A stretch of DNA of 64,000 bases from Marinilactibacillus piezotolerans (GTDB taxonomy: Bacteria > Bacillota > Bacilli > Lactobacillales > Carnobacteriaceae_A), in assembly GCF_900169305.1 (NCBI RefSeq), contig NZ_FWDP01000004.1, forward strand, positions 1,054,001-1,118,000, in the 5' to 3' direction. The notes below the pieces were generated by a model. That model worked only from the letters and a program-made list of their open reading frames with translations. It was not told where the DNA came from and did not search any database. Below, piece after piece: positions 4,881 to 35,255 of the stretch. Position 1 is the stretch's first letter. Each line of letters opens with the position of its first letter. Made by a program: the position numbers and the translations under genes.

Positions 4881-5215
4881 AAAAAAAGCTTCTGTCCTAT
4901 AAAATCTATGTGTAGATTTCAAAGGACAAAAGCTTCAGCTTTCGTGTTACCACCTTTATTCGCCGCATGCTCACGCATGAGACCTCATCCAGTACTTAGA
5001 TTAGAGCAAGGCTGTCATCTGTATACTGCGGCACGATATCGGGTGCATCCGGATCAGGCTTGTGAAGATTCATTCACCTGTTCTGCTCAAAGATCATTTT
5101 CCACCCCGCCTGCATTGCTGCTTTTCACCAAATCGCAGCTCTCTTTGAATGTTTCTTGGATGTACTCTTCTTATCATCGCTTTATTCTATCGCTTATAAC
5201 GGTTCATGTTTAAGT
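4881..5215 (-). promoter_or_regulatory. T-box riboswitch upstream of metNIQ (likely tRNA-Met)
   Basis: Read on the minus strand, the leader contains the T-box core AAAGGTGGTAACACG (4943-4957), which pairs with the uncharged tRNA acceptor end. It is followed by a terminator: AAGCTTTTGTCC pairs with GGACAGAAGCTT and ends in T7 (4881-4887). Stem I landmarks are visible further upstream, including AGAGAGCTG and GGTGAAAAGCAGC. A candidate specifier codon ATG lies at 5095-5097, consistent with methionine; this codon is inferred from placement and was not modelled. Uncharged tRNA should favour antitermination and expression of metNIQ. A plus-strand reading frame crossing this leader is spurious. Confidence 0.88.
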
Positions 5216-23557: not shown

Positions 23558-23924
23558 GGGGTTGTTACGGATTCGACAGGCATAGATTGAGCTTGAGTTG
23601 CGTTCCGCAGGCGGCGGCTGCGTACCAACGTCACAGTTAAATATAACTGCTAAAAACAATAATAACACTTACGCTTTAGCTGCGTAATAACAGCTAATTA
23701 GCGTGATCCGAACTGGCATCGCCCACGTGTCACGTTTGGGTCCTATAATTAAGTGGGATACGCCAAAGCTTTCCGTCTGTAAGCTTTGGAAGAGATTACC
23801 AGACTAGCGACGCATGATGCCTGTTATACGGCTAGTGCAGAGCGAACTCTTAATCGTATAACTATGAACGTAGAGGCTTAAGTGCCAATGTGTCTGGACA
23901 GGGGTTCGACTCCCCTCAACTCCA
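23558..23924 (+). ncRNA. ssrA: Transfer-messenger RNA (tmRNA)
   Basis: About 367 nt. The tRNA-like ends are clear: 5' GGGGTTGTTACGGATTCGAC and 3' GGGGTTCGACTCCCCTCAACTCCA, with acceptor stem GGGGTTG/CAACTCC and encoded CCA. The tag frame begins with the resume codon GCT at 23649 and reads AKNNNNTYALAA before TAA (23685-23687), ending in the ALAA degron recognised by ClpXP. It rescues stalled ribosomes together with SmpB, whose gene lies 20 kb away on the other strand. Its 3' end is next to an integrase gene and is the likely integration site of the element that follows. Confidence 0.97.
23901..23924 (+). other. Probable attachment site (attL) in the ssrA 3' end
   Basis: The T-arm and acceptor end of ssrA (GGGGTTCGACTCCCCTCA..., ending with CCA) is a common target of tyrosine integrases. 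The frameshifted integrase gene lies 125 nt downstream, reading toward this site. No second copy of this sequence was found by eye in the rest of the window, so the other end is unplaced. Confidence 0.55.
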
Positions 23925-23949
23925 TAAAGAAAAAGTTATAAGAAGAAAC

Positions 23950-23996
23950 AAGCCTGTAAACGCCGAAAATATAGCATTTACAGGCTTTTCTTTTTT
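23950..23996 (+). terminator. Rho-independent terminator after ssrA
   Basis: Stem AAGCCTGTAAA / TTTACAGGCTT with a long T-run (23987-23996) on the plus strand. It lies beyond the presumed attL, so the element or a rearranged flank supplies it. Confidence 0.85.
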
Positions 23997-24049
23997 GTGG
24001 TGAGACGTTATTTAAATATATGAGGGGGAGTAAAAAGGGGAGCAAGAAA

Positions 24050-25175
24050 TTAAAAATCAATATGATTGGAAAAACGTTCAGCAAAATCGTCTCTCTGAGC
24101 TTTTGTAAGGTGGGTATAGGTGTTTTGTGTAGTAGAGATATCGAAGTGTCCTAAGCGTCGTTGAATCTCTTCCATTGAAGCACCAGCTTCATAAAGAAGA
24201 GTGGCATGTGTATGCCTTAATTTATGAACGGGTATAGGATCAAGACCAGCTTTTTCAGCTGTACTTCTTAACCATTTGCGAGGTTTGGAAGGTGAGAGCC
24301 ATTTTCCGTACTCACTGACGAATACCCACTTATAAGGATTGTGTTCTCTCCATTCTAGTAATAGTTCGAGTGTCCTTATTATCTATAGTAGTCATTCGCT
24401 TACTCGTATAGTTTTTAGGTTCTTTCAAATAGAGCTCTGTTTTATTATTTGATCCAGCAACTGTACGTCTGCTGATAGCTTTATCTACTCTAATCATGTA
24501 ATTAACAGGGTCAACGTCTTCCCAAGTTAACGCTAAAGCTTCTCCTTTTCTTAATCCAGTAAAAGCAAGCAATCTAAGCAAAGCTTTAGCTTGTAAGTTA
24601 TCAGAATCGTCGAGGACATCCATAAATTGCTTTAATTCTTCTGTTTCATAAAAAGTTTTAGTTGCTGCTTTTTTAGGTTTTCTAGGTTTAGAAACAAGTT
24701 CACAGGGATTAGAGAGAATAATTTGTTGTTTCCTAGCATGATGGAAGACCCGACTCATTTCATCCAGCCATTTGCTGGCATTGGAAAAGGCGCTCCATTC
24801 GTTCACCTGCTTCTGGATCATGTTAGCGTCTATTTTGCTAATTAGATAAGACCCGAATTCTGGAAGAATTCTATTGTTAAACATACCATCATTCTTTAAT
24901 AGCGTCGACTCAGCAACAGTATTTTTGTATGAATCTCTCCATGACTCATATACATCTTCGAAAGTCATTTCTTTTTTATCTTTCACTTCATAGTATGTTT
25001 TATTAGCGACTTGTGCTTGAATTCGTTTTAAGACTATATTGGCTTCCCGTTTCGTTTTAAAGCCTTGTCTAGTAGTCTTGGATTTCTTTCCAGTCAAAGG
25101 GTGTACACCAGTATAGACTGTAAACTTAAAAGCTGTTTCACCATTTTTCTTTTTGTATTTCTGTATTTCAGCCAT
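24050..25175 (-). pseudogene. int: Tyrosine recombinase/phage integrase, one-base frameshift
   Basis: The first part reads MAEIQKYKKKNGETAFKFTVYTGV (AP2-like arm-binding domain), then an SAM-like core-binding domain and the catalytic domain start with TGLRKGEALALTWEDVD (first catalytic Arg). After KRMTTIDNK the frame shifts and ends early. Removing one G of AAGGACAC near 24373 restores TLELLLEWREHNPYKWVF and, later, HKLRHTHATLLYEAGAS, LGHFDISTTQNTYTHL with the His, Arg and Tyr residues. The total span is one base more than 375 codons, confirming a single insertion. GAGGTG is placed for the MAEIQ start. Either a recent mutation or a sequencing error. Confidence 0.88.
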
Positions 25176-25210
25176 TTTCATTCACCTCACATATGTTATA
25201 ATAGGTACAC

Positions 25211-25281
25211 AAAAGAGACCTACGCTGTAGGCTTCTTTTCACTAACACACCTAATCTTCTTGGCGGGAGGGTAGGTGTGTT
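25211..25281. terminator. Two hairpins between int and res
   Basis: First: AAAAGAGACCTAC-GCT-GTAGGCTTCTTTT (25211-25239), symmetric with A- and T-runs and able to stop the res transcript. Second: AACACACCTA...TAGGTGTGTTTTTT (about 25244-25282), with a T-run on the plus strand. Confidence 0.6.
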
Positions 25282-25287
25282 TTTTAT

Positions 25288-27864
25288 TTATTTTACAATA
25301 TAATTCTCAAAGTCTTCTCTGAACTCATTTTTGTACTGTGAAGTATCAGAGTAAAATTTAAGTCCTAACAGACGGACATCATCATTTTCCGATAGGATCT
25401 CAATATCATCCCGTTCTAATAGAGAAGTCAGGAAGTCTTCTTTCCATTTATCAGTCAATCTTAAATGATCACCTTTAGGTTCCAGGAAGACCTGGTAGGT
25501 GTAGTTTTCGTCTTGTAAGTAGAGCAGGAAGTCGGGCATGAATCCTCGTACACCGTCAATTTCTACTATTTTTATCTTACGTTCGTTTCTAATCAGATAG
25601 ACTTCTTTATATTTCTTTTTCAATTCCTCGATATAATCATTGATAAAATCGATAAAGGAATCTTCAAGGTTATTCACTATAGCTTTATCATATATAAACC
25701 AATCAAAGTGTCTCATGGATCGAGGCTGTTTGACTTCTGTCATGTCTGATACGTTTGCATTCACTTTGTTCATCTCTACATAATAGTTATTGATAAGCTC
25801 AGAGAATGCTACTCCCTCAAAGACAGGCGTACCACGTTCTTTAGAATAATTCAGACGTATTTTTTTCTCGAGATACTCAAAGAACTGATCAACCATCTTG
25901 AGTTTTTCTTTTGGGTTTAGATCTTCAAGATTCATTGAAACTGGTGCAGATATGTTTAATGTTGCGTTACCTAAAAAATCAGGACTATTTAAAAAGTCTT
26001 GCATGCTGGATAAAGCAGGAATATAATTCTTGAAGTTCTCAAACCTAAAGAACGTATTACGTTGAATTGCTTTTTGTTTATATACTGAATCTATTTTCCA
26101 GGACAGAAGATGTGTATCGAAATTAACTTTAGATTTTACATTTTTTCCAAATTGTTGTTCAATAGCAGGTTGAAAACTTATGTCATACAAATCATAAGCG
26201 TTATATTTCTCCAACGTATCAAAGTCATCCGGAGTTGTTTCAACAAGTTTATTAATATAAATCTTGCCGTTCTTAAAGATTGGATGCTTTCTGAAGCTAG
26301 GCTTTATTTTAGCTTCTAGTCGTTCATAACTATCTTCTTTAACTTGAATGTTAGCAGCTTCAAGTGACTTATTGAGATTCTTGATATAAGAGTTCTTATT
26401 AATTGTATGGTAGTGCAGGGACTCTATAGCCTTCAGATCGGATCCAATGGCATCGAAACGTCGTTTATACGATTGTTCACCTTGATGTTCAAAAGGGAAG
26501 TAACGGGCTCCACGGCCAATAAGCTGAGCTTCACTATCTGTAGTTGTTTTTGTAGTAGATGCACCTTCACTCACTCGAACAATATCAAAAAGGTTCAATA
26601 CATCCCAGCCTTCATTCAACTTGGCTACAGCAAAAATTGTTCTAATTGGATTATTTGGTTCTTCCAGACTATTAAGCATGAGTGCATTGTCTTCAGACAG
26701 AAATTCTTTACTATTTGCATTGATAGTCGTTGCATCAGTAAAGTCCCATTTGAGATCTTGGAGAACGTGACTCAAATCTTTTGTCTTATAATAATGGAAC
26801 ATTTTCCCCCAGATACCTTGGTTATATTGGTAAAGTGCATATCCATGTTCGATTGTATCTGTTAGTTTATCAAGGGTTAGTGATTGTATCATATTCAGCA
26901 ATGTTTCGTTAGCTTTTACAGATGTAGCAATTTTATTTGATTTAAATAAAATAACGGGCTTTATCGATACATTGTTATCATGAGCTATATATTTACGGTA
27001 TTGGCTGAGTAAGATAGCGTGAAACATTTTATTATCGTCATCTTCATCAGCTCGAAGGAGCATTACGTTTTTAGAATAGCCATCATTCATAAAATGTTTT
27101 AAGTCATATTGGTATACGATCTTATCACGGTATTTATCGAAAAGAGCATCTTTGTTTAAATCGATAGTAGCAGTGAATTCCAGGAGTCTATTTTCTGGAT
27201 TCAACGCTAATAGTTTACTTACAGTATTTTCCCAAGTTTTTTCTTCTGCTTCTTTAGTGTTTAGTTTCCGTTCATCACGTTTAGTTAAAGCGTTGATATG
27301 ATGAGCCTCATCAGCAAGCAAAACAACTTTATCCTCTTCTAATGAATCAAATGTTAATGAATTTTCTCTAGGTTCAGTTAGATCCATGTGTAATTTCTGT
27401 ATAGTCGTAAGCTTAAGATATATCGTATTTTTGTCTGGCAGTGACGGGAAGACCTCAACAATTTGAATATTAATCTTTTCTCCATCTATAGTGATCCCAT
27501 CTTTTGTAAATAGATATTTAGATGAGGACAAGTTTGTTAAATTATCAAATGTTTTTCTGATAATAGCATCTGTATTAACAAAGAAGATAAAGTTTTGGTG
27601 ATTGTGCTGCTTGAATAAATAAAGCATAGTTGCAGCAAGCACCAAAGTCTTGCCTGATCCAGTAGCCATATGGAATAATAAATGATTAAAACTCATATCG
27701 GCATTATCCGATTCTTGAGCAAAAACAAAATGTTCCAAGGCTTCTTGCTGATAAGGTCTTAAGTCATGACTCAAGTTATCCGTAATATAGCTTGGTATTT
27801 CCGGTGGATTCTGAAAGAGGTTGAATGAATCAGCTATTTTTTTGTGTAATAGTTCCTCAGCCAA
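25288..27864 (-). CDS. res: Type III restriction enzyme, Res subunit
   Basis: An 858-residue Type III restriction subunit, which translocates along DNA with ATP and cuts in complex with Mod. The SF2 helicase part has the Walker A MATGSGKTLVLAA, DEAHH (motif II) and EFTATI (motif III). The C-terminal endonuclease has a PD-(D/E)xK pattern: FMPDFLLYL followed by VFLEPKG. The frame extends 26 codons upstream, but AAGGAGG (inside the last mod codons) precedes a TTG at 27862-27864, one base after the mod TAA; that start is chosen and implies translational coupling. All key motifs are intact, so it is probably functional. Confidence 0.92.
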   Translation of the reverse strand: MAEELLHKKIADSFNLFQNPPEIPSYITDNLSHDLRPYQQEALEHFVFAQESDNADMSFNHLLFHMATGSGKTLVLAATMLYLFKQHNHQNFIFFVNTDAIIRKTFDNLTNLSSSKYLFTKDGITIDGEKINIQIVEVFPSLPDKNTIYLKLTTIQKLHMDLTEPRENSLTFDSLEEDKVVLLADEAHHINALTKRDERKLNTKEAEEKTWENTVSKLLALNPENRLLEFTATIDLNKDALFDKYRDKIVYQYDLKHFMNDGYSKNVMLLRADEDDDNKMFHAILLSQYRKYIAHDNNVSIKPVILFKSNKIATSVKANETLLNMIQSLTLDKLTDTIEHGYALYQYNQGIWGKMFHYYKTKDLSHVLQDLKWDFTDATTINANSKEFLSEDNALMLNSLEEPNNPIRTIFAVAKLNEGWDVLNLFDIVRVSEGASTTKTTTDSEAQLIGRGARYFPFEHQGEQSYKRRFDAIGSDLKAIESLHYHTINKNSYIKNLNKSLEAANIQVKEDSYERLEAKIKPSFRKHPIFKNGKIYINKLVETTPDDFDTLEKYNAYDLYDISFQPAIEQQFGKNVKSKVNFDTHLLSWKIDSVYKQKAIQRNTFFRFENFKNYIPALSSMQDFLNSPDFLGNATLNISAPVSMNLEDLNPKEKLKMVDQFFEYLEKKIRLNYSKERGTPVFEGVAFSELINNYYVEMNKVNANVSDMTEVKQPRSMRHFDWFIYDKAIVNNLEDSFIDFINDYIEELKKKYKEVYLIRNERKIKIVEIDGVRGFMPDFLLYLQDENYTYQVFLEPKGDHLRLTDKWKEDFLTSLLERDDIEILSENDDVRLLGLKFYSDTSQYKNEFREDFENYIVK

Positions 27865-27865
27865 T

Positions 27866-29734
27866 TTATTCGCCTCCTTGACCATAGAAAGAGTGATTAA
27901 ACTGTTTAACTTCTTCAGAAATATCATATTGAGTATCATCAATTTCAGAATAATTTAGATACAATTGGTTCATATCTAAGACATCAATCAATACTTTTTT
28001 CTTTTCGTCTATGGATAGGGTAGAGAAATGATCATCTTCAACAGTTACTTTGTTAAGTTCAACTTTGAAGTTTAAGTAGGCAGATGACATCATTTCTTCC
28101 AATATGGTTTCTAACTGTTCTTCTGATGCAATTTCATTCAATTTATCGATATAATGTTGATTTAGACTATCCAATTCAGCATAGACGAAACTACCACCGC
28201 CTCGCCAGTCTACCTCTTTAGATATACCGCCTTGTTCACCCTCGATTACTTTTTGAAGACGATGGACTGAAACAGTATTTATATAATCCATTTGTTCAAT
28301 TCCTATGAATTTGCGATTCATCTTCATTGCGACTGCCTGAGTGGTTGCGGAACCCATAAAGAAATCTAATAATAGGTCGTTTTCATTGGTAGCTAATTCT
28401 ATAACAGTTTTTAAGAGACCTTCTGGCTTTGGAGTAGAAAATACTGCTTTACCAAATAAACCCTTTAACTCTTTATTAGCCTCTCTAGTAGTTCCAGAAT
28501 TCAACCAAATGTTCTCAGGAGTTCTTCCGGATTGATCTGATAGATAAATTTTTCTAATAATGCCAGAATTATCAGCTTTAAAAATTATTTCCCCAGTAGA
28601 TATTTTTTCTTTTACTGTTTTTTCAGACCATCTCCAACCATTATCAGGCGGGCTGATAATGGAGTTGTCGGGAGCGATAATGTTATACTTCAAAGTTTCA
28701 CGTAAATTAGGGCTTCTAACGTCACCAGATCTCCACAAGCCTTTTGGGTCATTATCTGGATTCTTATAATTTATGTTATCTTTTTTTGTTCGCGGCGCTT
28801 CAAAATTATCTAATAAATCTTTGTTTTTTGAATATACAATTAGGTGATTATAATGTCTTGAAAAGAAACGTTCATCATTTTTACTTTGTTTAGTATGATT
28901 CCAAACTATATCAGCAATAAAATTATTTCTATTAAAAATTGAATCTAATATTACATTTAAATAGTGACTTTCATTACTGTCAATATTAATCCAAATACTC
29001 CCACTCTCTGCCAGTAATTCTTTTGCTATTTCCAAACGGTTCTTCATAAATGTCAGCCATGTGGAGTGGTTAAAACTGTCGTTGTAATTGAAACCATCAT
29101 TATTGGTGTTATAAGGCGGATCAATATAAATCAATTTTACTTTACCAGCATAACGTTCTTTCAGGGTATGTAGAGCTAAGAGATTATTACCTTTAATGAT
29201 CAAATTATCATTATCATTAAATTCTGTAACCTCACGTTCACCATCTTTATCATACTTATTCATGTTTGTTAAAACTTTAGGGGAGAATAGGGTATCAATT
29301 TCTTCTTTTGCAATCACATTATGATAATAGACTTCTTTTTTATCCTCATCTTCATTAGACATACCGCCTTCTAACACACAATCTTTAAAAGGGAAGTCTA
29401 GGACCACATCTGTATTGTAATTTAGGTATTTACCATCGCTGGTTAATCCAATTTCATTTCGGTATTTTGTATAACTATTTTCCCAATAGGTTTTATATCG
29501 CAGCATTTCGATAAACTCTTCTACTTTAAAAATGGTCATGTCACCAACTGAAAGGGCATAGGCCTCTTTAATTTTATCGTTAGATAGTAAAGCAGTAATA
29601 ACTTTTTCATCGTAGTTTCTAAGATCTTCGATAACTCTATTTTTTAACAATGTTTCTTCATCCCAATATTCAGGGAAATCAGAAAGCACAGTTTTTATGT
29701 TATTCAATAGTGTTGTTTCTATTGTTGAGTTCAC
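27866..29734 (-). CDS. mod: Type III DNA methyltransferase, Mod subunit
   Basis: A 622-residue beta-class N6-adenine methyltransferase that gives sequence recognition to the Type III complex. Motif IV DPPYNTNNDGFNYNDSF comes before motif I FFMGSATTQAVAMKMNRKFIGIEQ, the order of the beta class. The region between them is the variable target-recognition domain. The start is GTG with AAGGAGA 7 nt upstream, only 22 nt after the CI-like repressor stop, so mod is probably co-transcribed with it. No simple-repeat tract that would make it phase-variable was seen. Base composition is visibly AT-richer than the glycolytic genes. Confidence 0.92.
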   Translation of the reverse strand: MNSTIETTLLNNIKTVLSDFPEYWDEETLLKNRVIEDLRNYDEKVITALLSNDKIKEAYALSVGDMTIFKVEEFIEMLRYKTYWENSYTKYRNEIGLTSDGKYLNYNTDVVLDFPFKDCVLEGGMSNEDEDKKEVYYHNVIAKEEIDTLFSPKVLTNMNKYDKDGEREVTEFNDNDNLIIKGNNLLALHTLKERYAGKVKLIYIDPPYNTNNDGFNYNDSFNHSTWLTFMKNRLEIAKELLAESGSIWINIDSNESHYLNVILDSIFNRNNFIADIVWNHTKQSKNDERFFSRHYNHLIVYSKNKDLLDNFEAPRTKKDNINYKNPDNDPKGLWRSGDVRSPNLRETLKYNIIAPDNSIISPPDNGWRWSEKTVKEKISTGEIIFKADNSGIIRKIYLSDQSGRTPENIWLNSGTTREANKELKGLFGKAVFSTPKPEGLLKTVIELATNENDLLLDFFMGSATTQAVAMKMNRKFIGIEQMDYINTVSVHRLQKVIEGEQGGISKEVDWRGGGSFVYAELDSLNQHYIDKLNEIASEEQLETILEEMMSSAYLNFKVELNKVTVEDDHFSTLSIDEKKKVLIDVLDMNQLYLNYSEIDDTQYDISEEVKQFNHSFYGQGGE

Positions 29735-29756
29735 TGAACATTCTCCTTCATGTAAA

Positions 29757-30383
29757 TTATAATTCTACATCTACTCTTAAAGCTTTCCCTACAATCTTGG
29801 CGGGATTCTCTTCCGTCACTATGTAAGGGGCGTAATCTTCGTTTAGCGGTTGTAATAGAATAGTTTTTCCTTGCTTAATTACTTTCTTTAATGTTGTTTC
29901 TTCATCACCATTAACCAACACCGCAGCAATTTCTCCACTTTCTACATCTTCTTGTTTACGGCATAGTACATAGGATCCATTAGGAATCTTAGGCTCCATA
30001 CTATCACCAGTTGCTTCTAAGAAGAATAATTCACCATGATAATCTAAATAGTCTTTAGGGACTTCACGATACTCAGATATATTTTCTATTGCAGTGATGG
30101 GATCACCACATGCGATTTTACCTAAGACAGGGATGCGCTCGAAGCCAGTTACGGGTATCATGTTTTTCGCTTCAGTTGGTGGAAATAGATCGTTAATACT
30201 TACGTCTAGAGCTTCTGCCAAATCGAATAAGACATCTTGATTCGGGGAACGATATCCGGTCTCATAATTAGAAATAGTTGCTTTTTTTGTTCCGATTAAG
30301 TTACCTAATTCTTCTTGAGTCATTTTCTTCATTTTTCGATAATGTCTTATTTTATTTCCGATAAAGTTATTTAATTTATCCAT
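29757..30383 (-). CDS. CI/LexA-like repressor (XRE HTH plus S24 peptidase)
   Basis: A 208-residue phage-type repressor. The N-terminal HTH is MTQEELGNLIGTKKATISNYETGYRSP. The C-terminal S24 domain has the cleavage region GKIACGDPI, catalytic Ser in ATGDSMEPKIPNGS and catalytic Lys in EETTLKKVI. Such repressors hold lysogeny and self-cleave when RecA is activated. RBS GAAGGAGG. It is divergent from a Cro-like gene and upstream of mod-res in the same direction, so its promoter probably drives the R-M genes as well. Confidence 0.92.
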   Translation of the reverse strand: MDKLNNFIGNKIRHYRKMKKMTQEELGNLIGTKKATISNYETGYRSPNQDVLFDLAEALDVSINDLFPPTEAKNMIPVTGFERIPVLGKIACGDPITAIENISEYREVPKDYLDYHGELFFLEATGDSMEPKIPNGSYVLCRKQEDVESGEIAAVLVNGDEETTLKKVIKQGKTILLQPLNEDYAPYIVTEENPAKIVGKALRVDVEL

Positions 30384-30416
30384 AAAATTTTTACCTCCTT
30401 CCTGTTTATACTATTC

Positions 30417-30504
30417 ATTGTACACACTAAAAAAATGGAAATCAACAAATAATACACATAATGCAAACTTTTGTGTTGACGATTATATGCGTATCGTGTA
30501 CTAT
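30417..30504. promoter_or_regulatory. Divergent lysogeny-switch promoters and candidate operators
   Basis: Leftward (cI) promoter: TTGATT (30440-30445), 17-nt spacer, TACAAT (30417-30422). Rightward (cro) promoter: TTGACG (30476-30481), 17-nt spacer, TACTAT (30499-30504). Related GTGTA half-sites recur: TTAGTGTGTACAA (minus, over the cI -10), CATTATGTGTATT (minus, about 30450-30462) and TATCGTGTACTAT (plus, over the cro -10). The promoters are well supported; the operator set is inference. Confidence 0.65.
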
Positions 30505-30529
30505 GTGAATGTAGACAGGATGTAAATGG

Positions 30530-30757
30530 ATGCAATGGCATTTAATTCGAGAAAGAAAAGAACATGGAGAAACACAGAAAGACTTATCTAAGTTACTAGA
30601 TATTAGTGAAAATGCCTATAGACTAAAAGAGAAAGGAGATAATCAATTTAAAAGTGAAGAAATGTTTTTGATAGCCGATCATTATAATAAAAGTATTAGA
30701 GATATTTTTTTACCTAACAAGTACACGTTACGCAAGCACAAGCGGAATGAGGAATAA
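30530..30757 (+). CDS. Cro-like small HTH regulator
   Basis: A 75-residue HTH protein with ETQKDLSKLLDISENAYRLKEKGDNQFKSEEMFLIADHYNKSIRDIFL, the XRE fold of small Cro/CI-family regulators. It is divergent from the S24 repressor, the expected position for the early lytic regulator. The ribosome site is weak (AGGATG). It overlaps the following BRO-N gene by 11 nt. Confidence 0.8.
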   Translation: MQWHLIRERKEHGETQKDLSKLLDISENAYRLKEKGDNQFKSEEMFLIADHYNKSIRDIFLPNKYTLRKHKRNEE

Positions 30758-31034
30758 AATGAATTTAAAAACATACTTATTTGAAAGTCGAATGGTAAGA
30801 ATGATAGAAAAAGAAAATGAGCCGTGGTTTGTAGGAAAGGATGTAGCGGAAATACTAGGCTACTCCAATTCAAGTAAGGCAGTATCTAATCATGTTGATT
30901 TAGAAGATAAAAGGTTTGAAATGATAGCACATTCCCGAAATGGGAATCTGTCAGAAACTAAAACGGCTATCATCAATGAATCAGGATTTGGTATTACGTC
31001 AATATCTTGGACACGCTTTAAGAGAATTTCTTAA
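30747..31034 (+). pseudogene. Truncated phage antirepressor (BRO-N domain)
   Basis: The first ~75 residues match the BRO/Ant N-terminal domain: YLFESRMVRMIEKENEPWFVGKDVAEILGYSNSSKAV, then TAIINESG. After INESGF the sequence no longer follows the family and stops after 95 residues; antirepressors usually continue for 150 or more residues with a second DNA-binding or KilA-C domain. A different frame downstream (QDLVLRQYLGHALREFL...) is open to about 31073, so the 3' part appears replaced by foreign DNA. Likely inactive. Confidence 0.7.
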
Positions 31035-31063
31035 TGAAACATGGACCCGTTTTGAGGCCTCAA

Positions 31064-31116
31064 GGTTTCGGTAAACGTTCTAACCGCTGACGCTTTTTAG
31101 AACATTTACCGAAACC
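31064..31116. repeat. Long inverted repeat (20-bp arms)
   Basis: GGTTTCGGTAAACGTTCTAA pairs with TTAGAACATTTACCGAAACC with a single mismatch and a 13-nt loop. There is no T-run, so it does not look like a terminator. It sits between the truncated antirepressor and the IS and could be a MITE-like remnant or the edge of another mobile element. Confidence 0.6.
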
Positions 31117-31167
31117 ATGAGGATAGCTAAAGTCTTTCTATTTAACCGTCCTGTGGTTCCGTCTAAC

Positions 31168-32056
31168 TTAAATGACTGCTTGATCTAAGTATGCTTGCTC
31201 AATGGCCAGGGGCGTTCGGTTCCCAAGTGCCGAGTGGATTCTCTTCCGATTGTAGAAGGCTTCAATGTATTGAAATAATTCTCTATAAGCCGTATCGAAA
31301 TCAGGATAATTTTTTTTGATAAACTTCTTCCTTTTTTACGATAGAATGAAAGGATTCGATTACGGCATTATCGTGAGGACTCCCTTTCCGACTGAAACTA
31401 TGACGAATCCCTTGTTTTTCCAACGCAGATTCATACGCTTCGCTTGTGTACTGTGAACCAAGATCAGAATGGAGAATGAGGCCTTCGGCCGCACCGTATC
31501 GTTGGGTTGCCTTGGTTAAAGTATCTAAGACCAGATCCACAGTCATCTGTCGGCTAAATGACCAAATGGCTTTCCGTGAATATAAATCAAGGATCGTGGA
31601 GAGGTAACTCCATTCATCTTTCCCTGTCCAAATGTAGGTTATATCCGTTACCCATATTTGGTTCAATCCAGTGGTAGAAAAATCTTGATGTAATAAGTTT
31701 ACCCGATCGTCTGACACAGGATCAGCGGACCTATGTGGCCGCCATTTCTTTTGTGTAATGGAACGAATGCCCTGTTTATGCATCAGTTTTTGAACACGTT
31801 TGAGACTGCAGTCTTCGTTTTCTTGAGTAACCAAGATTGCATAAATTTTCGGGGCACCATACACACGCCCACTTGATTCCCATATGCGTTCAATTTTTTT
31901 TGAGGATACGCCGATTTTCACGATCTCTATGCGATTCCTCGCGATTAATACGTTCATAAAAACTTGAGCGTGGAATCGCAAACAATTCCAGTGTTCGCTT
32001 TAAATTGATGTCGTCTTTAATTGCGTTGAGTTCGAAAATAAAGTCATCGCGGTCTA
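31168..32056 (-). pseudogene. IS3-family transposase OrfB, two frameshifts
   Basis: The DDE integrase core is readable: TDITYIW, HSDLGSQYTS and NAVIESFHS. The reading is broken twice, each time at an A8 run on the minus strand (31894-31901 and 31310-31317 on the plus strand as T8). Dropping one A from each restores NRRILKKIERIWESSGRVYG and VYQKNYPDFDTAYRELFQY and carries the frame to TAA at 31168. The orfB frame is open from the orfA end (CAAAAATAG, a plausible -1 slip site). Probably inactive unless slippage at A8 is used. Confidence 0.8.
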
Positions 32057-32314
32057 TTTTTGAGTGAACATGGCTAAGACCTTTTTTAGGATATCATTGT
32101 CTGTCTTAAGACGGGCATTCTCTGCTTTGATTTTTTCGATATCTGCTTCAGAATACCCGGTTTTTTCATCCGTGGAATATTTTTTGATCCACCGATAAAT
32201 GGTTTGTTCTGCTATGCCATGTTCCTCACTTAAATTCTTTACTGAATGACCATTTTCGTACAAACTGACTAGTGTTTTCTTATAGTCGACATCATAGGTT
32301 CTTCGATTTGACAT
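32054..32314 (-). CDS. IS3-family transposase OrfA
   Basis: An 86-residue helix-turn-helix protein (YDVDYKKTLVSLYENGHSVKNLSEEHGIAEQTIYRWIKK) with a leucine-zipper-like C-terminal helix (IEKIKAENARLKTDNDILKKVL), the standard OrfA layout. It binds the IS ends and in IS3 elements is fused to OrfB by -1 frameshifting. RBS AAAGGAGTG. Confidence 0.85.
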   Translation of the reverse strand: MSNRRTYDVDYKKTLVSLYENGHSVKNLSEEHGIAEQTIYRWIKKYSTDEKTGYSEADIEKIKAENARLKTDNDILKKVLAMFTQK

Positions 32315-32405
32315 CGATAGACACTCCTTTTCGATAGTTTATATTCTATCAAAACGTGTCCAGGATTTCATACTAACATCAGCATGTTTACTCATCTTAG
32401 ATGGG

Positions 32406-33098
32406 GTGTCAGTTCAAGCGGAAGAACTTAGTGATGATGCATTAGATGAATTAAGTTATAATGACTTCGCCGAAGCTCAAGAGATTTTCGATGAAAGATA
32501 CGGAGATGAAATCTTGAGTGAGCATGAGAAAGATGACTTAGCTGTCTTGATATTGAATGAGATTGCAAATAAAGCTAAACCGTTCAATAACTCAGAGATA
32601 AATTACTCTCTTATGGCCAGCTCTTCAAGTATATTGCCCGAAGCATATAAAAAACTCAACTCTAAAGAAAAGGCATTGGTTAAAACAAGTCCATCTCAAG
32701 CTTTGCACGTATACGCTGCATCTAAATCTGCAAATCAATTATCTATAACGTACTTCAAAAATGGAGGTAACGATAAAAATAATGGTAATGCTTTTAAACA
32801 TGCTTATTGGAACGTTTTAATGTATGTGCAAATTGGCTATAATGGTGCAAAAAAATGGGCAGACGCCCACGAATATGGACATAGTGGTGTAGCTACCACA
32901 ATGGACTATAGAAATAATGAAGTGGGCCGGCAAACTGGGAAAACTCTAGTTTCTCAAGTTAAGAAGAAACACAAACGAAAACCTACTTATTTAGAAGCTA
33001 GAAATGCTGTCTTTACAAAAATCAATCAGGGAAAACTATATAGAGTTGTGAACTCTAAACTAGTTAAGACAAATAGCTCAGATAATATTAGACGGTAG
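32406..33098 (+). CDS. Secreted DUF6973-like protein, 5' end cut by IS
   Basis: 230 residues from an internal GTG. The frame is open further upstream to the IS edge and reads DFILTSACLLILDG-VSVQA-EELSDD: the hydrophobic core and AXA cleavage site of a signal peptide without its start. So the true N-terminus was removed or separated by the insertion. The mature part has KHAYWNVLM...AKKWADAHEYGHSG, a His-rich pattern like the DUF6973 family (HAxW...AHE), possibly a metal-dependent hydrolase; this link is moderate. It is 22 nt before a membrane-anchored protein gene and probably forms a unit with it. Confidence 0.6.
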   Translation: MSVQAEELSDDALDELSYNDFAEAQEIFDERYGDEILSEHEKDDLAVLILNEIANKAKPFNNSEINYSLMASSSSILPEAYKKLNSKEKALVKTSPSQALHVYAASKSANQLSITYFKNGGNDKNNGNAFKHAYWNVLMYVQIGYNGAKKWADAHEYGHSGVATTMDYRNNEVGRQTGKTLVSQVKKKHKRKPTYLEARNAVFTKINQGKLYRVVNSKLVKTNSSDNIRR

Positions 33099-33120
33099 TA
33101 TAATGAGTTGGAGTGGTCGT

Positions 33121-33543
33121 ATGAATTTAAAAAGAGTTTTTATTCCTATATCTATTATAGTTATTCTTTTATTGGGTTTATGGATTTATTTAGAAACTAA
33201 TAAACCAGAAAATATACTTACAATAGATAACACTTCAAGCAGTACAGTGAAAAATATTAATGTTTACCTAACCAAGAGTACTGATGCTGATGATCAAATC
33301 ATTTACGAAAAAGAGTTTGGTTCTGTTAGTGAGATTCCACCAGACAGCTCAAAAGATATAGTATTTTCAGAATCTACTGAAAATGAACCCTTTAACATCG
33401 TCCTTGAATATAAAGATATGAAGGGAAATATTCATCAAGATTTTGTCAATAATTATATTCCAGAAAATTCTAAACATTTTAACCATACTCAAGTTATAGA
33501 AAACGTCGATGAAAACGGAGTAATAACATTTAGAAGCTATTAA
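33121..33543 (+). CDS. Membrane-anchored protein of unknown function
   Basis: About 140 residues starting MNLKRVFIPISIIVILLLGLWIYLE (basic start and one membrane segment), then an extracellular beta-rich domain (ILTIDNTSSSTVKNINVYL, FNIVLEYKDMKGN). An earlier in-frame start exists six codons upstream, but GGAGTGG is spaced 4-6 nt from this ATG. No family is recognised. It follows the secreted DUF6973-like gene closely, so the two probably act together at the cell surface, for example as effector and partner or immunity; that is inference. Confidence 0.7.
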   Translation: MNLKRVFIPISIIVILLLGLWIYLETNKPENILTIDNTSSSTVKNINVYLTKSTDADDQIIYEKEFGSVSEIPPDSSKDIVFSESTENEPFNIVLEYKDMKGNIHQDFVNNYIPENSKHFNHTQVIENVDENGVITFRSY

Positions 33544-33551
33544 CAAAGAAG

Positions 33552-33583
33552 AAAGCCCTCATCCAATTAGGACGAGGGCTTTT
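33552..33583 (+). terminator. Rho-independent terminator
   Basis: Stem AAAGCCCTC / GAGGGCTTT around an inner TCC/GGA pair, followed by TTTT on the plus strand. The 400-nt gap up to 33945 also contains a palindrome (AACTGGTCGATTTCGACTAGTT, about 33586-33607), a second hairpin and a promoter; no gene was seen in it. Confidence 0.85.
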
Positions 33584-33651
33584 AAACTGGTCGATTTCGA
33601 CTAGTTTGAGATTAAAAAGTACCATATAAATGAAAGTACCTTTTAAAGCTT

Positions 33652-33690
33652 AAAAAAAGCAAACTTCCCTTTGCTTTTTAGTTTTTTTTA
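33652..33690 (+). terminator. Second terminator-like hairpin
   Basis: AAAAAGCAAA / TTTGCTTTTT hairpin followed by T8. It could stop a transcript that reads through the first terminator, or one from the minus strand, since both flanks are A/T homopolymers. Confidence 0.6.
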
Positions 33691-33843
33691 ACAATCCGAG
33701 TAAGACAAATTTTAGTGAAATTTTCCATTTGCTGAAGAGAGAGTATGTGATTCATCGAATTACTGTATACAAATTCTGAATCGTGGACTTATATTTTGCC
33801 ATTCTAATAGATTAGATTCATTTACGCTTACTTGTGAGTTAAT

Positions 33844-33872
33844 TTTACGGTAATTTTGAAGGGACATATGAT
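33844..33872 (+). promoter_or_regulatory. Candidate promoter of the ASCH gene
   Basis: TTTACG, 17-nt spacer, TATGAT (33867-33872), about 70 nt upstream of the start codon. Confidence 0.4.
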
Positions 33873-33944
33873 TATGTTAAACTTTAACTACTGCCTATAT
33901 ACGGTTATAACAAAAAATGATACATAAAAAAGGATGCGCTACTT

Positions 33945-34418
33945 ATGAATTCAATCGAAAAATACTGGAAAGACTTTGCACAGATAAATAATTTACCAAG
34001 TACTCTTCCGGAGGCTTGGATGTTTGGCGATGGTTCTGAGTCTATGGGAGACGAACTTGGAGCTTTAGTAGTAAATGGAATAAAGACTGGAACTTGTTCT
34101 GCTGAATGTGTTTATGAGTTGGAGGGTGAAGAACTGCAGAAAGTTGGACAGTATGACATCGTACTGGACGGCAGAGAAAATCCTTTAGCCATCATTCAAT
34201 ACACTGACATTGAAGTGTTACCCATGAATGAAGTTTCGGAAGCCTTTGCTTTTTCCGAAGGAGAAGGCGATAGGAGCTATGAGTATTGGTACCGTGAGCA
34301 TGAAAAGTTCTTTACATGGGAACTTGGTCTATACGATTTGCCATTCACTCCTGATATGCTGGTCGTTTGCCAAACCTTTAAAGTCGTAGATATTTATGGA
34401 AACAAACAGAATAGCTAA
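33945..34418 (+). CDS. ASCH domain-containing protein
   Basis: A 157-residue ASCH-domain protein, a PUA-related RNA-binding fold. Typical landmarks: WMFGDGSESMGDELGALVVNGIKTGTCS near the start, DIVLDGRENPLAIIQYTDIEVLPM in the middle and EYWYREHEKFF toward the end. Some members are RNA-binding regulators and some are small-molecule amidohydrolases (the YqfB branch); no specific function can be given. RBS is weak. Its stop lies 15 nt before the next gene. Confidence 0.82.
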   Translation: MNSIEKYWKDFAQINNLPSTLPEAWMFGDGSESMGDELGALVVNGIKTGTCSAECVYELEGEELQKVGQYDIVLDGRENPLAIIQYTDIEVLPMNEVSEAFAFSEGEGDRSYEYWYREHEKFFTWELGLYDLPFTPDMLVVCQTFKVVDIYGNKQNS

Positions 34419-34433
34419 GAAAGGAGAATTGCA

Positions 34434-34733
34434 TTGGTCAAATTTGGACCGAGGAAACCGAGTTTTAAAAAGTCTTTTTCTGCAAGAACAACAGGAAGAG
34501 CTAAAAGAGCTGTCAAACGGTCGATTGATCCTACTTATGGTAAAAAAGGAGCTGGATGGATCAAGAATCCGAAGAAAGCTGCCTATAATAAAGTGTATAA
34601 TAAAACGACTTTTTCCGTTACTGACGGTACTAAAACTCCTTCAAAAAATAATGACTCCAGCTCAGGATGTGCCTGTGGTTGTATCATAGCAGTGTTGCTT
34701 ATTTTACTGGTTATTATTCTTGCCATATTTTGA
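34434..34733 (+). CDS. Small basic protein with C-terminal membrane anchor
   Basis: A 99-residue protein starting at TTG with AAAGGAG 7 nt upstream. The first part is strongly basic (KFGPRKPSFKKSFSARTTGRAKRAVKR, then YGKKGAGWIKNPKKAAYNKVYNKTTF). A Ser/Asn linker leads to CACGC and one membrane segment (IIAVLLILLVIILAIF), so it is tail-anchored with the basic part probably in the cytoplasm. Similar hypothetical proteins occur in Firmicutes, often near phage genes, but no function is known. Probably co-transcribed with the ASCH gene. Confidence 0.7.
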   Translation: MVKFGPRKPSFKKSFSARTTGRAKRAVKRSIDPTYGKKGAGWIKNPKKAAYNKVYNKTTFSVTDGTKTPSKNNDSSSGCACGCIIAVLLILLVIILAIF

Positions 34734-34821
34734 CGAATCTTCGCAGTGTACTGAGTTGATGGAAGATTATGTTATAGCCTTAATAAACGACTGTCATAGC
34801 TACTTGAAATCAACAGAATCT

Positions 34822-34855
34822 AAAAAAAGAGCAACCATTATTGGCTGCTCTTTTT
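34822..34855. terminator. Bidirectional terminator
   Basis: Stem AAAAAGAGCA / TGCTCTTTTT with A-run left and T-run right, between the convergent 34434 and 34838 genes. Confidence 0.8.
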
Positions 34856-35140
34856 GAATATACTCTTCAATTCATCTATGCGGATCAATATTTCTTTTTG
34901 TGCTTCTATGTGAAAGGCTCTTATACAGTATCCAGAAGGAATCTTTTTAAATCCTTCTACAGTAATCATCCTATTTCTCAATCCCTTAAAGCGATCATCT
35001 GGAGAATCCAGCATAAAATGGTCTCCTCTTTTTATCTCGTAACTCTTACTAATTGTTTGGCTTCTAACCGCTACTTTAATCTTCAAAACTTTCCCAGCGC
35101 CGTCTTTTATAACCGTCGCCCTCGTTATCCTTTTATTCAT
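34838..35140 (-). CDS. Small protein of unknown function
   Basis: About 100 residues, basic and mostly beta-strand in pattern (RATVIKDGAGKVLKIKVAVRS, RNRMITVEGFKKIPSGYCIRAFHIEAQKEILIRIDEL), without membrane segments. Starts at the ATG of MNKRITRA; a start four codons earlier is also possible, and neither has a strong ribosome site. It may be an SH3-like or OB-like small domain, but no family is recognised. Standing alone between two terminators. Confidence 0.55.
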   Translation of the reverse strand: MNKRITRATVIKDGAGKVLKIKVAVRSQTISKSYEIKRGDHFMLDSPDDRFKGLRNRMITVEGFKKIPSGYCIRAFHIEAQKEILIRIDELKSIFKKSSQ

Positions 35141-35255
35141 ATCCATCCCCATCTAAATAACGTTTATTATTTTATTGAATTCATTATACTATAAATGGTT
35201 ATTATTACTGAATCAGGATGCTTACAACTGGTTTAGCAGGATTGGCTTTCTTTCT

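What the first reader, a model, noticed from the sequence alone, without database searches (positions are those of the whole stretch)
23558..31034. Compact int / res-mod / cI element inserted at ssrA
Sequence shows a frameshifted tyrosine integrase against the ssrA 3' end, then Type III res and mod, an S24 repressor, a divergent Cro-like gene and a truncated antirepressor, with no structural phage genes. The R-M pair occupies the place of lysogenic cargo. It may be a small defence satellite or a decayed prophage kept for its R-M cargo.
Basis: partly seen in the sequence, partly recalled or inferred. Interest (0 to 1): 0.62.

Follow-up and report, generated by a model that had tools for sequence, protein, structure and literature searches.

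The report
Stranded prophage carrying a restriction system
A dead virus stuck in a bacterial chromosome seems to have lost its particle genes but still carries an intact-looking pair of DNA-cutting and DNA-marking genes next to its master switch, so it may now defend its host against other viruses; this is a good example of a known kind of thing.

Summary
The R-M pair is absent from the four congeners held. The best reading is a decayed temperate prophage, not a satellite. Its CI C-terminal half and the int-upstream border match a full-size prophage of a congener (G001, not at ssrA) and another viral contig, both with different cargo in that slot. The res-mod pair lies exactly between the cI stop codon and a conserved RNA-like element upstream of int. 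mod starts 22 nt after cI on the same strand with no predicted promoter between, so CI and R-M are probably one lysogenic operon. An IS3-like element (30988-32381) cuts the antirepressor and abuts a gene lacking its 5' end: a deletion or rearrangement probably removed the rest and attR. Defence cargo between cI and integrase is already described (PMC9122126). In passing, the border element proved to be a covarying RNA-like family (31 of 80 viral integrase loci, a biased sample), not in Rfam; among the papers I found, ncRNAs at that position are reported only in S. pyogenes prophages.

The parts
23558..23927 (+). ssrA (tmRNA), presumed attachment gene; left att core in its 3' end (about 23896-23925)
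   Evidence: second ssrA 3' copies at elements of other genomes
23950..23987 (.). terminator-like hairpin between ssrA and int; by eye it resembles that of G026 and of the far att end in G015, unlike G002
24050..25181 (-). tyrosine integrase, frameshifted (N-terminal ORF 24330-25181)
25197..25286 (+). conserved RNA-gene-like element divergent from int: extended -10, hairpin 1, intrinsic terminator hairpin 2; int-side border of the cargo slot
25288..27864 (-). res, type III restriction subunit (longest ORF to 27942; TTG 27864 has an AGGAGG site)
27866..29734 (-). mod, type III DNA methyltransferase subunit
29757..30383 (-). CI repressor: HTH plus S24 peptidase, GDSM serine, putative Cys-Gly cleavage site; stop codon = cI-side border of cargo
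30384..30529 (.). divergent promoter/operator region (TTCACA-16-TATAAT on -, TTGACG-17-TACTAT on +; inverted repeat arms 30452-30465 and 30497-30510)
   Evidence: consensus matches only
30530..30757 (+). Cro-like HTH protein
30747..30987 (+). Bro-N antirepressor, cut off by the IS
30988..32381 (-). IS3-like insertion sequence (orfA 32054-32314, orfB 31301-31981); right limit of the prophage remnant
   Evidence: second copy 97% identical elsewhere in the genome
32382..33098 (+). DUF6973 gene that lacks its 5' end at the IS

Best explanation
This is the left end (lysogeny module) of a temperate phage that integrated at ssrA and was stranded when the rest was lost at an IS3-like element. Shown: gene content, broken integrase, IS boundary with two truncated genes, no attR found, and homologous borders with other cargo in other prophages. 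Inferred: CI made from the divergent promoter region represses the early promoter and its own transcript continues into mod and res, so that the cell carries phage immunity plus type III restriction. Mod methylates one strand of an unknown site and Mod-Res cuts unmethylated incoming DNA. CI may be inactivated by RecA-stimulated self-cleavage, but with int broken and the rest of the phage gone no excision by its own means can follow.
For: Lysogeny order int-cargo-cI-cro-ant as in Dubowvirus record vB_SauS_832, with 66.6% DNA identity over about 680 bp from the start of cI through cro into ant. The last 381 bp of cI are 71% identical in DNA to a G001 prophage, up to the stop codon; that prophage has terminase, portal, capsid, tape measure and endolysin. 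The int-upstream element is shared with G001 (75% over about 113 bp; pattern match) and viral contig L070 (84% over 51 bp). Slot contents differ: mod-res; two proteins with lipoprotein-like starts; three proteins including DUF6978 and DUF1828/1829. mod starts 22 nt after cI with its own ribosome site; no minus-strand promoter match between. IS ends set by a second copy. No KilAC, no PF04860 portal, no second att. Int 83-86% DNA to an ssrA-linked int fragment in another genus. mod absent in 4 of 4 congeners.
Against: No attR, so integration at ssrA rests on position, on G026 and on other elements there. The G001 prophage is not at ssrA, its integrase differs, and its cI homology stops inside the gene, so relatives are mosaics; the blastn did not find its border element, which searches did. 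Neither IS copy shows an evident target duplication, so insertion and deletion cannot be ordered. Co-transcription, methylation and restriction are untested. The frameshift could be an assembly error. In 31 other type III stretches (two contigs counted twice) phmmer found no homologue of this CI at E<=1e-5, so cI-mod-res-int has no second example here; the nearest is a 74-aa HTH protein overlapping the start of mod in MAG contig L026 (38% over 37 aa, E 7e-5). G026, with the nearest int, has no mod match in its 89%-complete assembly.
Confidence: 0.8

Rival explanations
1. A compact phage satellite (PICI-like) that carried only int, R-M, cI, cro and ant plus a few genes now lost.
For: Small block, no structural genes; integrase plus divergent regulators is also a satellite layout (recalled).
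Against: No primase/rep or packaging-interference gene seen; far end missing; the nearest relatives of the module are a structural prophage and tailed-phage records.
Confidence: 0.1
2. The R-M pair is an independent chromosomal or plasmid-derived acquisition that landed by chance between phage remnants.
For: The closest mod (83% aa over residues 1-252, truncated) lies on a RepA/relaxase contig of G022, and other relatives are plasmid-borne.
Against: The pair fits exactly between the cI stop codon and the conserved int-upstream element, the slot that holds other cargo in other prophages. A plasmid origin of the genes before phage capture is compatible with the best explanation.
Confidence: 0.07
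3. Ordinary fixed chromosomal R-M locus beside ssrA.
For: R-M genes are open.
Against: Absent in 4 of 4 congeners; low G+C; flanked by phage genes.
Confidence: 0.03

Closest known systems
Prophage antiviral hotspots between cI and integrase (Rousset 2022, PMC9122126, passages read)
   Same: Variable defence genes, R-M among them, between cI repressor and integrase (P2-related phages of Vibrionaceae; a Bacillus prophage has a similar locus beside its integrase)
   Different: Here a Lactobacillales prophage, a type III pair directly behind cI, and the phage is stranded; in the passages I read, type III R-M is mentioned for P4-like satellites
Phage P1 / EcoP1I type III R-M (recalled, no call)
   Same: Type III mod-res carried by a temperate phage
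   Different: P1 is a plasmid prophage and its R-M is not in the repressor operon (recalled)
Lactobacillus phage JNU_P5 (MN830253)
   Same: Type III mod-res (42% and 44% aa; res interrupted by IS genes) in the integrase region; RNA-like element near int
   Different: R-M lies between endolysin and int, not between int and cI
ncRNA family upstream of integrase genes in S. pyogenes prophages (PMC6431027, passages read)
   Same: Position upstream of the prophage integrase; described as antisense
   Different: Sequence homology not established: prophage 315.1 gave no hit, two other Streptococcus phages only weak hits

Membership tests
Type III restriction-modification system | Mod with N6/N4 methylase domain, DPPY and type III N-terminal domain | tested here: met
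   PF01555 and PF12564 over cut-off; PADLOC 685 bits; motifs
Type III restriction-modification system | Res with SF2 helicase motifs and C-terminal PD-ExK nuclease motif, next to mod | tested here: met
   PF04851 over cut-off; PADLOC 810 bits; GSGKT, DEAH, PD...EPK
Type III restriction-modification system | Methylation and restriction activity | not testable with these tools
   needs bench or long-read data
Temperate tailed-phage prophage | Integrase beside an attachment gene plus divergent cI/cro/ant | tested here: met
Temperate tailed-phage prophage | Structural and packaging genes | tested here: not met
   none in the block; no PF04860 portal in the genome (other structural families not sought); hence 'remnant'
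Temperate tailed-phage prophage | Second attachment site | tested here: not met
PICI-type satellite | Replication module and helper-interference genes between att sites | tested here: inconclusive
   not present, but the far part is missing
cI-integrase defence hotspot | Same slot, different cargo in related prophages | tested here: met
   window, G001 prophage, L070 and L166
ncRNA upstream of integrase (S. pyogenes type) | RNA element in the intergenic region upstream of int | tested here: met
   position and covarying structure; transcription not tested
ncRNA upstream of integrase (S. pyogenes type) | Sequence and structure homology to the SP119 RNAs | tested here: inconclusive
   315.1 (L176) no hit; L175 E=0.029, L174 E=0.32, both at the right place; the SP119 sequences themselves were not read

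The most novel reading that the evidence does not exclude
Temperate phages of Lactobacillales share a plug-in cargo slot bounded by the cI stop codon and a conserved, covarying small RNA transcribed away from int. The RNA keeps int silent while the cI-cargo operon is on, and its extra copies between cargo genes give the homology by which cargo, here a whole type III R-M pair, is swapped in under CI control.
Probability: 0.35. Interest if true: 0.7.

Novelty: new member of a known kind. Interest (0 to 1): 0.42.

Why it matters
It suggests, step by step, how a defence system becomes host property: captured as lysogenic cargo, put behind the repressor, then stranded when an IS boundary and a broken integrase stop the phage leaving. 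If cI and mod-res really share one promoter, restriction is tied to the lysogenic state, a clean case in which immunity and restriction can be tested together. The border element could serve as a marker for finding such cargo in other prophages, and is a definite RNA to test for integrase silencing.

Tried and rejected
Searched for a second ssrA 3' end in the genome with a 133-bp and a 19-nt query and in the window with 29-nt, 21-nt and 16-nt queries: nothing beyond ssrA, apart from a 2-mismatch 16-mer inside mod. Homologues of mod and of int were sought in viral contigs by single sequence: none confirmed. Rfam at E<=1 gave only tmRNA in the block. A rearrangement that parks the rest of the phage elsewhere was tested by seeking KilAC (PF03374) and one portal family (PF04860) in the genome: none; other structural families were not sought. 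Recombination between the two IS copies as the cause: the flanks of the other copy show no phage gene by eye. Phase variation of mod by repeats: only a hexamer (2.7 copies) and an 11-mer (2.5 copies), nothing convincing. A sequence alignment of the RNA gave weak pairing support (1 of 11 pairs with changes on both sides; 5 of 7 on 17 sequences); the model-fitted alignment of 47 matches gave strong support, but it leans towards its own structure and the sequences are related. I did not resolve why a decayed prophage in G004 and an int fragment in G003 lie in the same interval in the opposite orientation.

Full report
Observation. All named genes are present. ARAGORN and Rfam place tmRNA at 23558-23924/27. 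The integrase has arm, SAM-like and partial catalytic domains, but its first frame ends at 24330; the remainder with the HxxRH and Tyr motifs is open in another frame down to 24050. A relative at ssrA in G026, a different genus of the same family, is 83% identical in DNA over 1045 bp from ssrA into int and is open in one frame to its contig edge. res and mod carry all tested type III motifs. CI has an HTH and an S24 domain with GDSM; the motif IACGDP suggests a Cys-Gly cleavage site (comparison with UmuD recalled). Cro-like and Bro-N genes follow on the other strand.

Right boundary. A second copy of the insertion sequence elsewhere in the genome (97%) sets its ends at 30988 and 32381. The left flank is Bro-N cut within its domain; the right flank is a DUF6973 gene without its start. 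Two unrelated truncated genes at the two ends indicate a deletion or rearrangement at the IS. Neither copy has an evident target duplication. No KilAC domain, no PF04860 portal and no second ssrA 3' end were found in the 2.29-Mb assembly. The element therefore probably cannot excise by its own means.

Left boundary. ssrA is a used site in this family: G015 has a second 79-bp ssrA 3' end 14 kb downstream of ssrA, G017 a 20-nt one, and G009 and G023 have phage-type integrases beside ssrA. In the four congeners the interval from ssrA to the YolD-like gene differs each time: short and nearly empty in G002, a plus-strand gene cluster in G001 that I did not annotate, IS debris plus an inverted integrase fragment in G003, a decayed prophage in G004. 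mod is absent in 4 of 4 congeners and present at E<=1e-20 in 6 of 27 family genomes, the window's own included.

Cargo slot. G001 holds a prophage whose proteins are, by eye, those of the 41.6-kb viral contig L069, with terminase, portal, capsid, protease, tape measure and endolysin. It is not at ssrA and its integrase is a different one. Its cI is 71% identical in DNA to ours over the last 381 bp, exactly up to the stop codon. Upstream of its integrase lies the element found in the window (75% over about 113 bp; exact pattern; not found by the blastn); viral contig L070 has it too (84% over 51 bp). Between these borders the window has mod-res, G001 two proteins with lipoprotein-like starts and no Pfam match, and L070 one such protein plus DUF6978 and DUF1828/1829. 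L166 (G014) likewise has two genes between a cI relative and an integrase at a contig edge. So the R-M pair fills a cargo slot with homologous borders.

Expression. cI, mod and res run on one strand; mod starts 22 nt after cI, with its own ribosome site, and res follows mod directly. Promoter-like matches occur in the cI-cro gap (30509-30482, 11 of 12) but none on the minus strand in the cI-mod gap (the scan as a whole finds no more than shuffled sequence, 32 against 33.5). Co-transcription is therefore an inference from spacing.

Origin of the R-M. The nearest mod (83% over residues 1-252, truncated) is on a contig of G022 with RepA, relaxase, MobC, ParA-like and Fic genes. A Jeotgalibaca plasmid has ParA, Fic and res genes in one neighbourhood. 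207 plasmid records match some of the pair's DNA, 2 of them over at least 80% of it. dN/dS between our mod and the G022 copy is 0.11/1.26, which shows constraint over the whole lineage, not after stranding. The nearest int (G026) and the nearest mod (G022) both come from genus g3, so a donor there is likely, though G026 itself has no mod match. Among 395 genomes of the order, 41 have mod at E<=1e-60, the window's own included. I looked at the neighbourhood in 23 of the other 40, and with the eight genome-contig loci checked 31 stretches, two contigs counted twice: 11 also have an integrase-model match, at least one of them (L142) apparently a housekeeping recombinase, and none has a homologue of this CI by phmmer at E<=1e-5. 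A looser blastp shows a 74-aa HTH protein overlapping the start of mod in L026 and a weak match in L062. The exact order cI-mod-res-int is thus unmatched in what I examined.

Border element. The window stretch 25197-25286 (+) has an extended -10, a hairpin, and a terminator hairpin with a conserved apex. Eight seeds, two of them beside serine integrases (L168; L172), gave model R1. Over 60 sources R1 found nine further matches at E<=0.04: six of the 29 integrase loci L072-L100 (L073, L074, L078, L081, L086, L093), each directly upstream of int and divergent (in L086 it overlaps the called int start), plus JNU_P5, plus second copies in L170 and L070 between cargo genes. Model R2 added none of the other 23 integrase loci. 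R2 then matched 31 of 80 viral integrase loci at E<0.001, all 31 on the strand opposite to int and 39-185 nt before the aligned integrase start; ten weaker rows up to E=1 include three inside or past int. The 80 are the best of 588 confirmed loci of a capped list and were drawn with an alignment in which nine of ten integrases already had the element, and many are near-duplicates, so 31 of 80 is not a prevalence. On 44 distinct sequences 9 of 11 pairs show changes on both sides, and 0 of 500 shuffles reach the observed scores, with the caution that the alignment was fitted to the model and the sequences are related. Rfam has no match. A transcript study reports ncRNAs upstream of the integrases of four S. 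pyogenes prophages and suggests silencing of int (PMC6431027, passages read). Whether they are the same family is open. My paper searches found no other report (passages of PMC3430984 and PMC6755750 seen).

Comparison with what is known. Rousset and colleagues describe defence hotspots between cI and integrase in P2-related phages of Vibrionaceae, and beside the integrase of a Bacillus prophage, R-M included (PMC9122126, passages read). The window locus works like those and is a new member, in a stranded state. I searched for type III R-M in such a slot and saw no such report in the listings, which is all I saw of those papers except where stated.

Noticed in passing
window 25197-25286 (+); also L163:13537-13627, L070:12981-13073, L168:1324-1417, L170:2956-3047, L172:1391-1471, and 31 of 80 viral loci L177-L256: Conserved, covarying RNA-gene-like element divergent from phage integrases of both tyrosine and serine type, not in Rfam; extra copies lie between cargo genes (L170:4846-4927, L070:11659-11744).
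   Followed up: yes
L034 (G015), ssrA to 14.3 kb downstream: Island at ssrA with a 79-bp ssrA 3' repeat carrying a type IIG R-M protein, a PDC-S28 candidate and a resolvase-like ORF (by eye), with a different tyrosine recombinase: a second defence island at the same site in the family.
   Followed up: partly
L033 and L155 (G004), ssrA to YolD-like gene: Decayed prophage with two amidases, tail genes and a CI 61% identical to the window's, oriented opposite to the window's remnant; G003 has an inverted integrase C-terminal fragment in the same interval.
   Followed up: partly
L030 (G001), 0.3-6 kb downstream of ssrA: Short ORF with a GG-type leader ending (read by eye) followed by plus-strand ORFs of 429, 246 and 717 aa, perhaps a bacteriocin and exporter cluster, at the same hotspot; not searched.
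   Followed up: no
window 32382-35200: Truncated DUF6973 gene, an ASCH protein, a PHROG-10934 protein and a 104-aa gene also found by DNA near ssrA in G003 and G004: further hotspot or prophage-end debris.
   Followed up: partly
window 4919-5186 (-): T-box leader.
   Followed up: no
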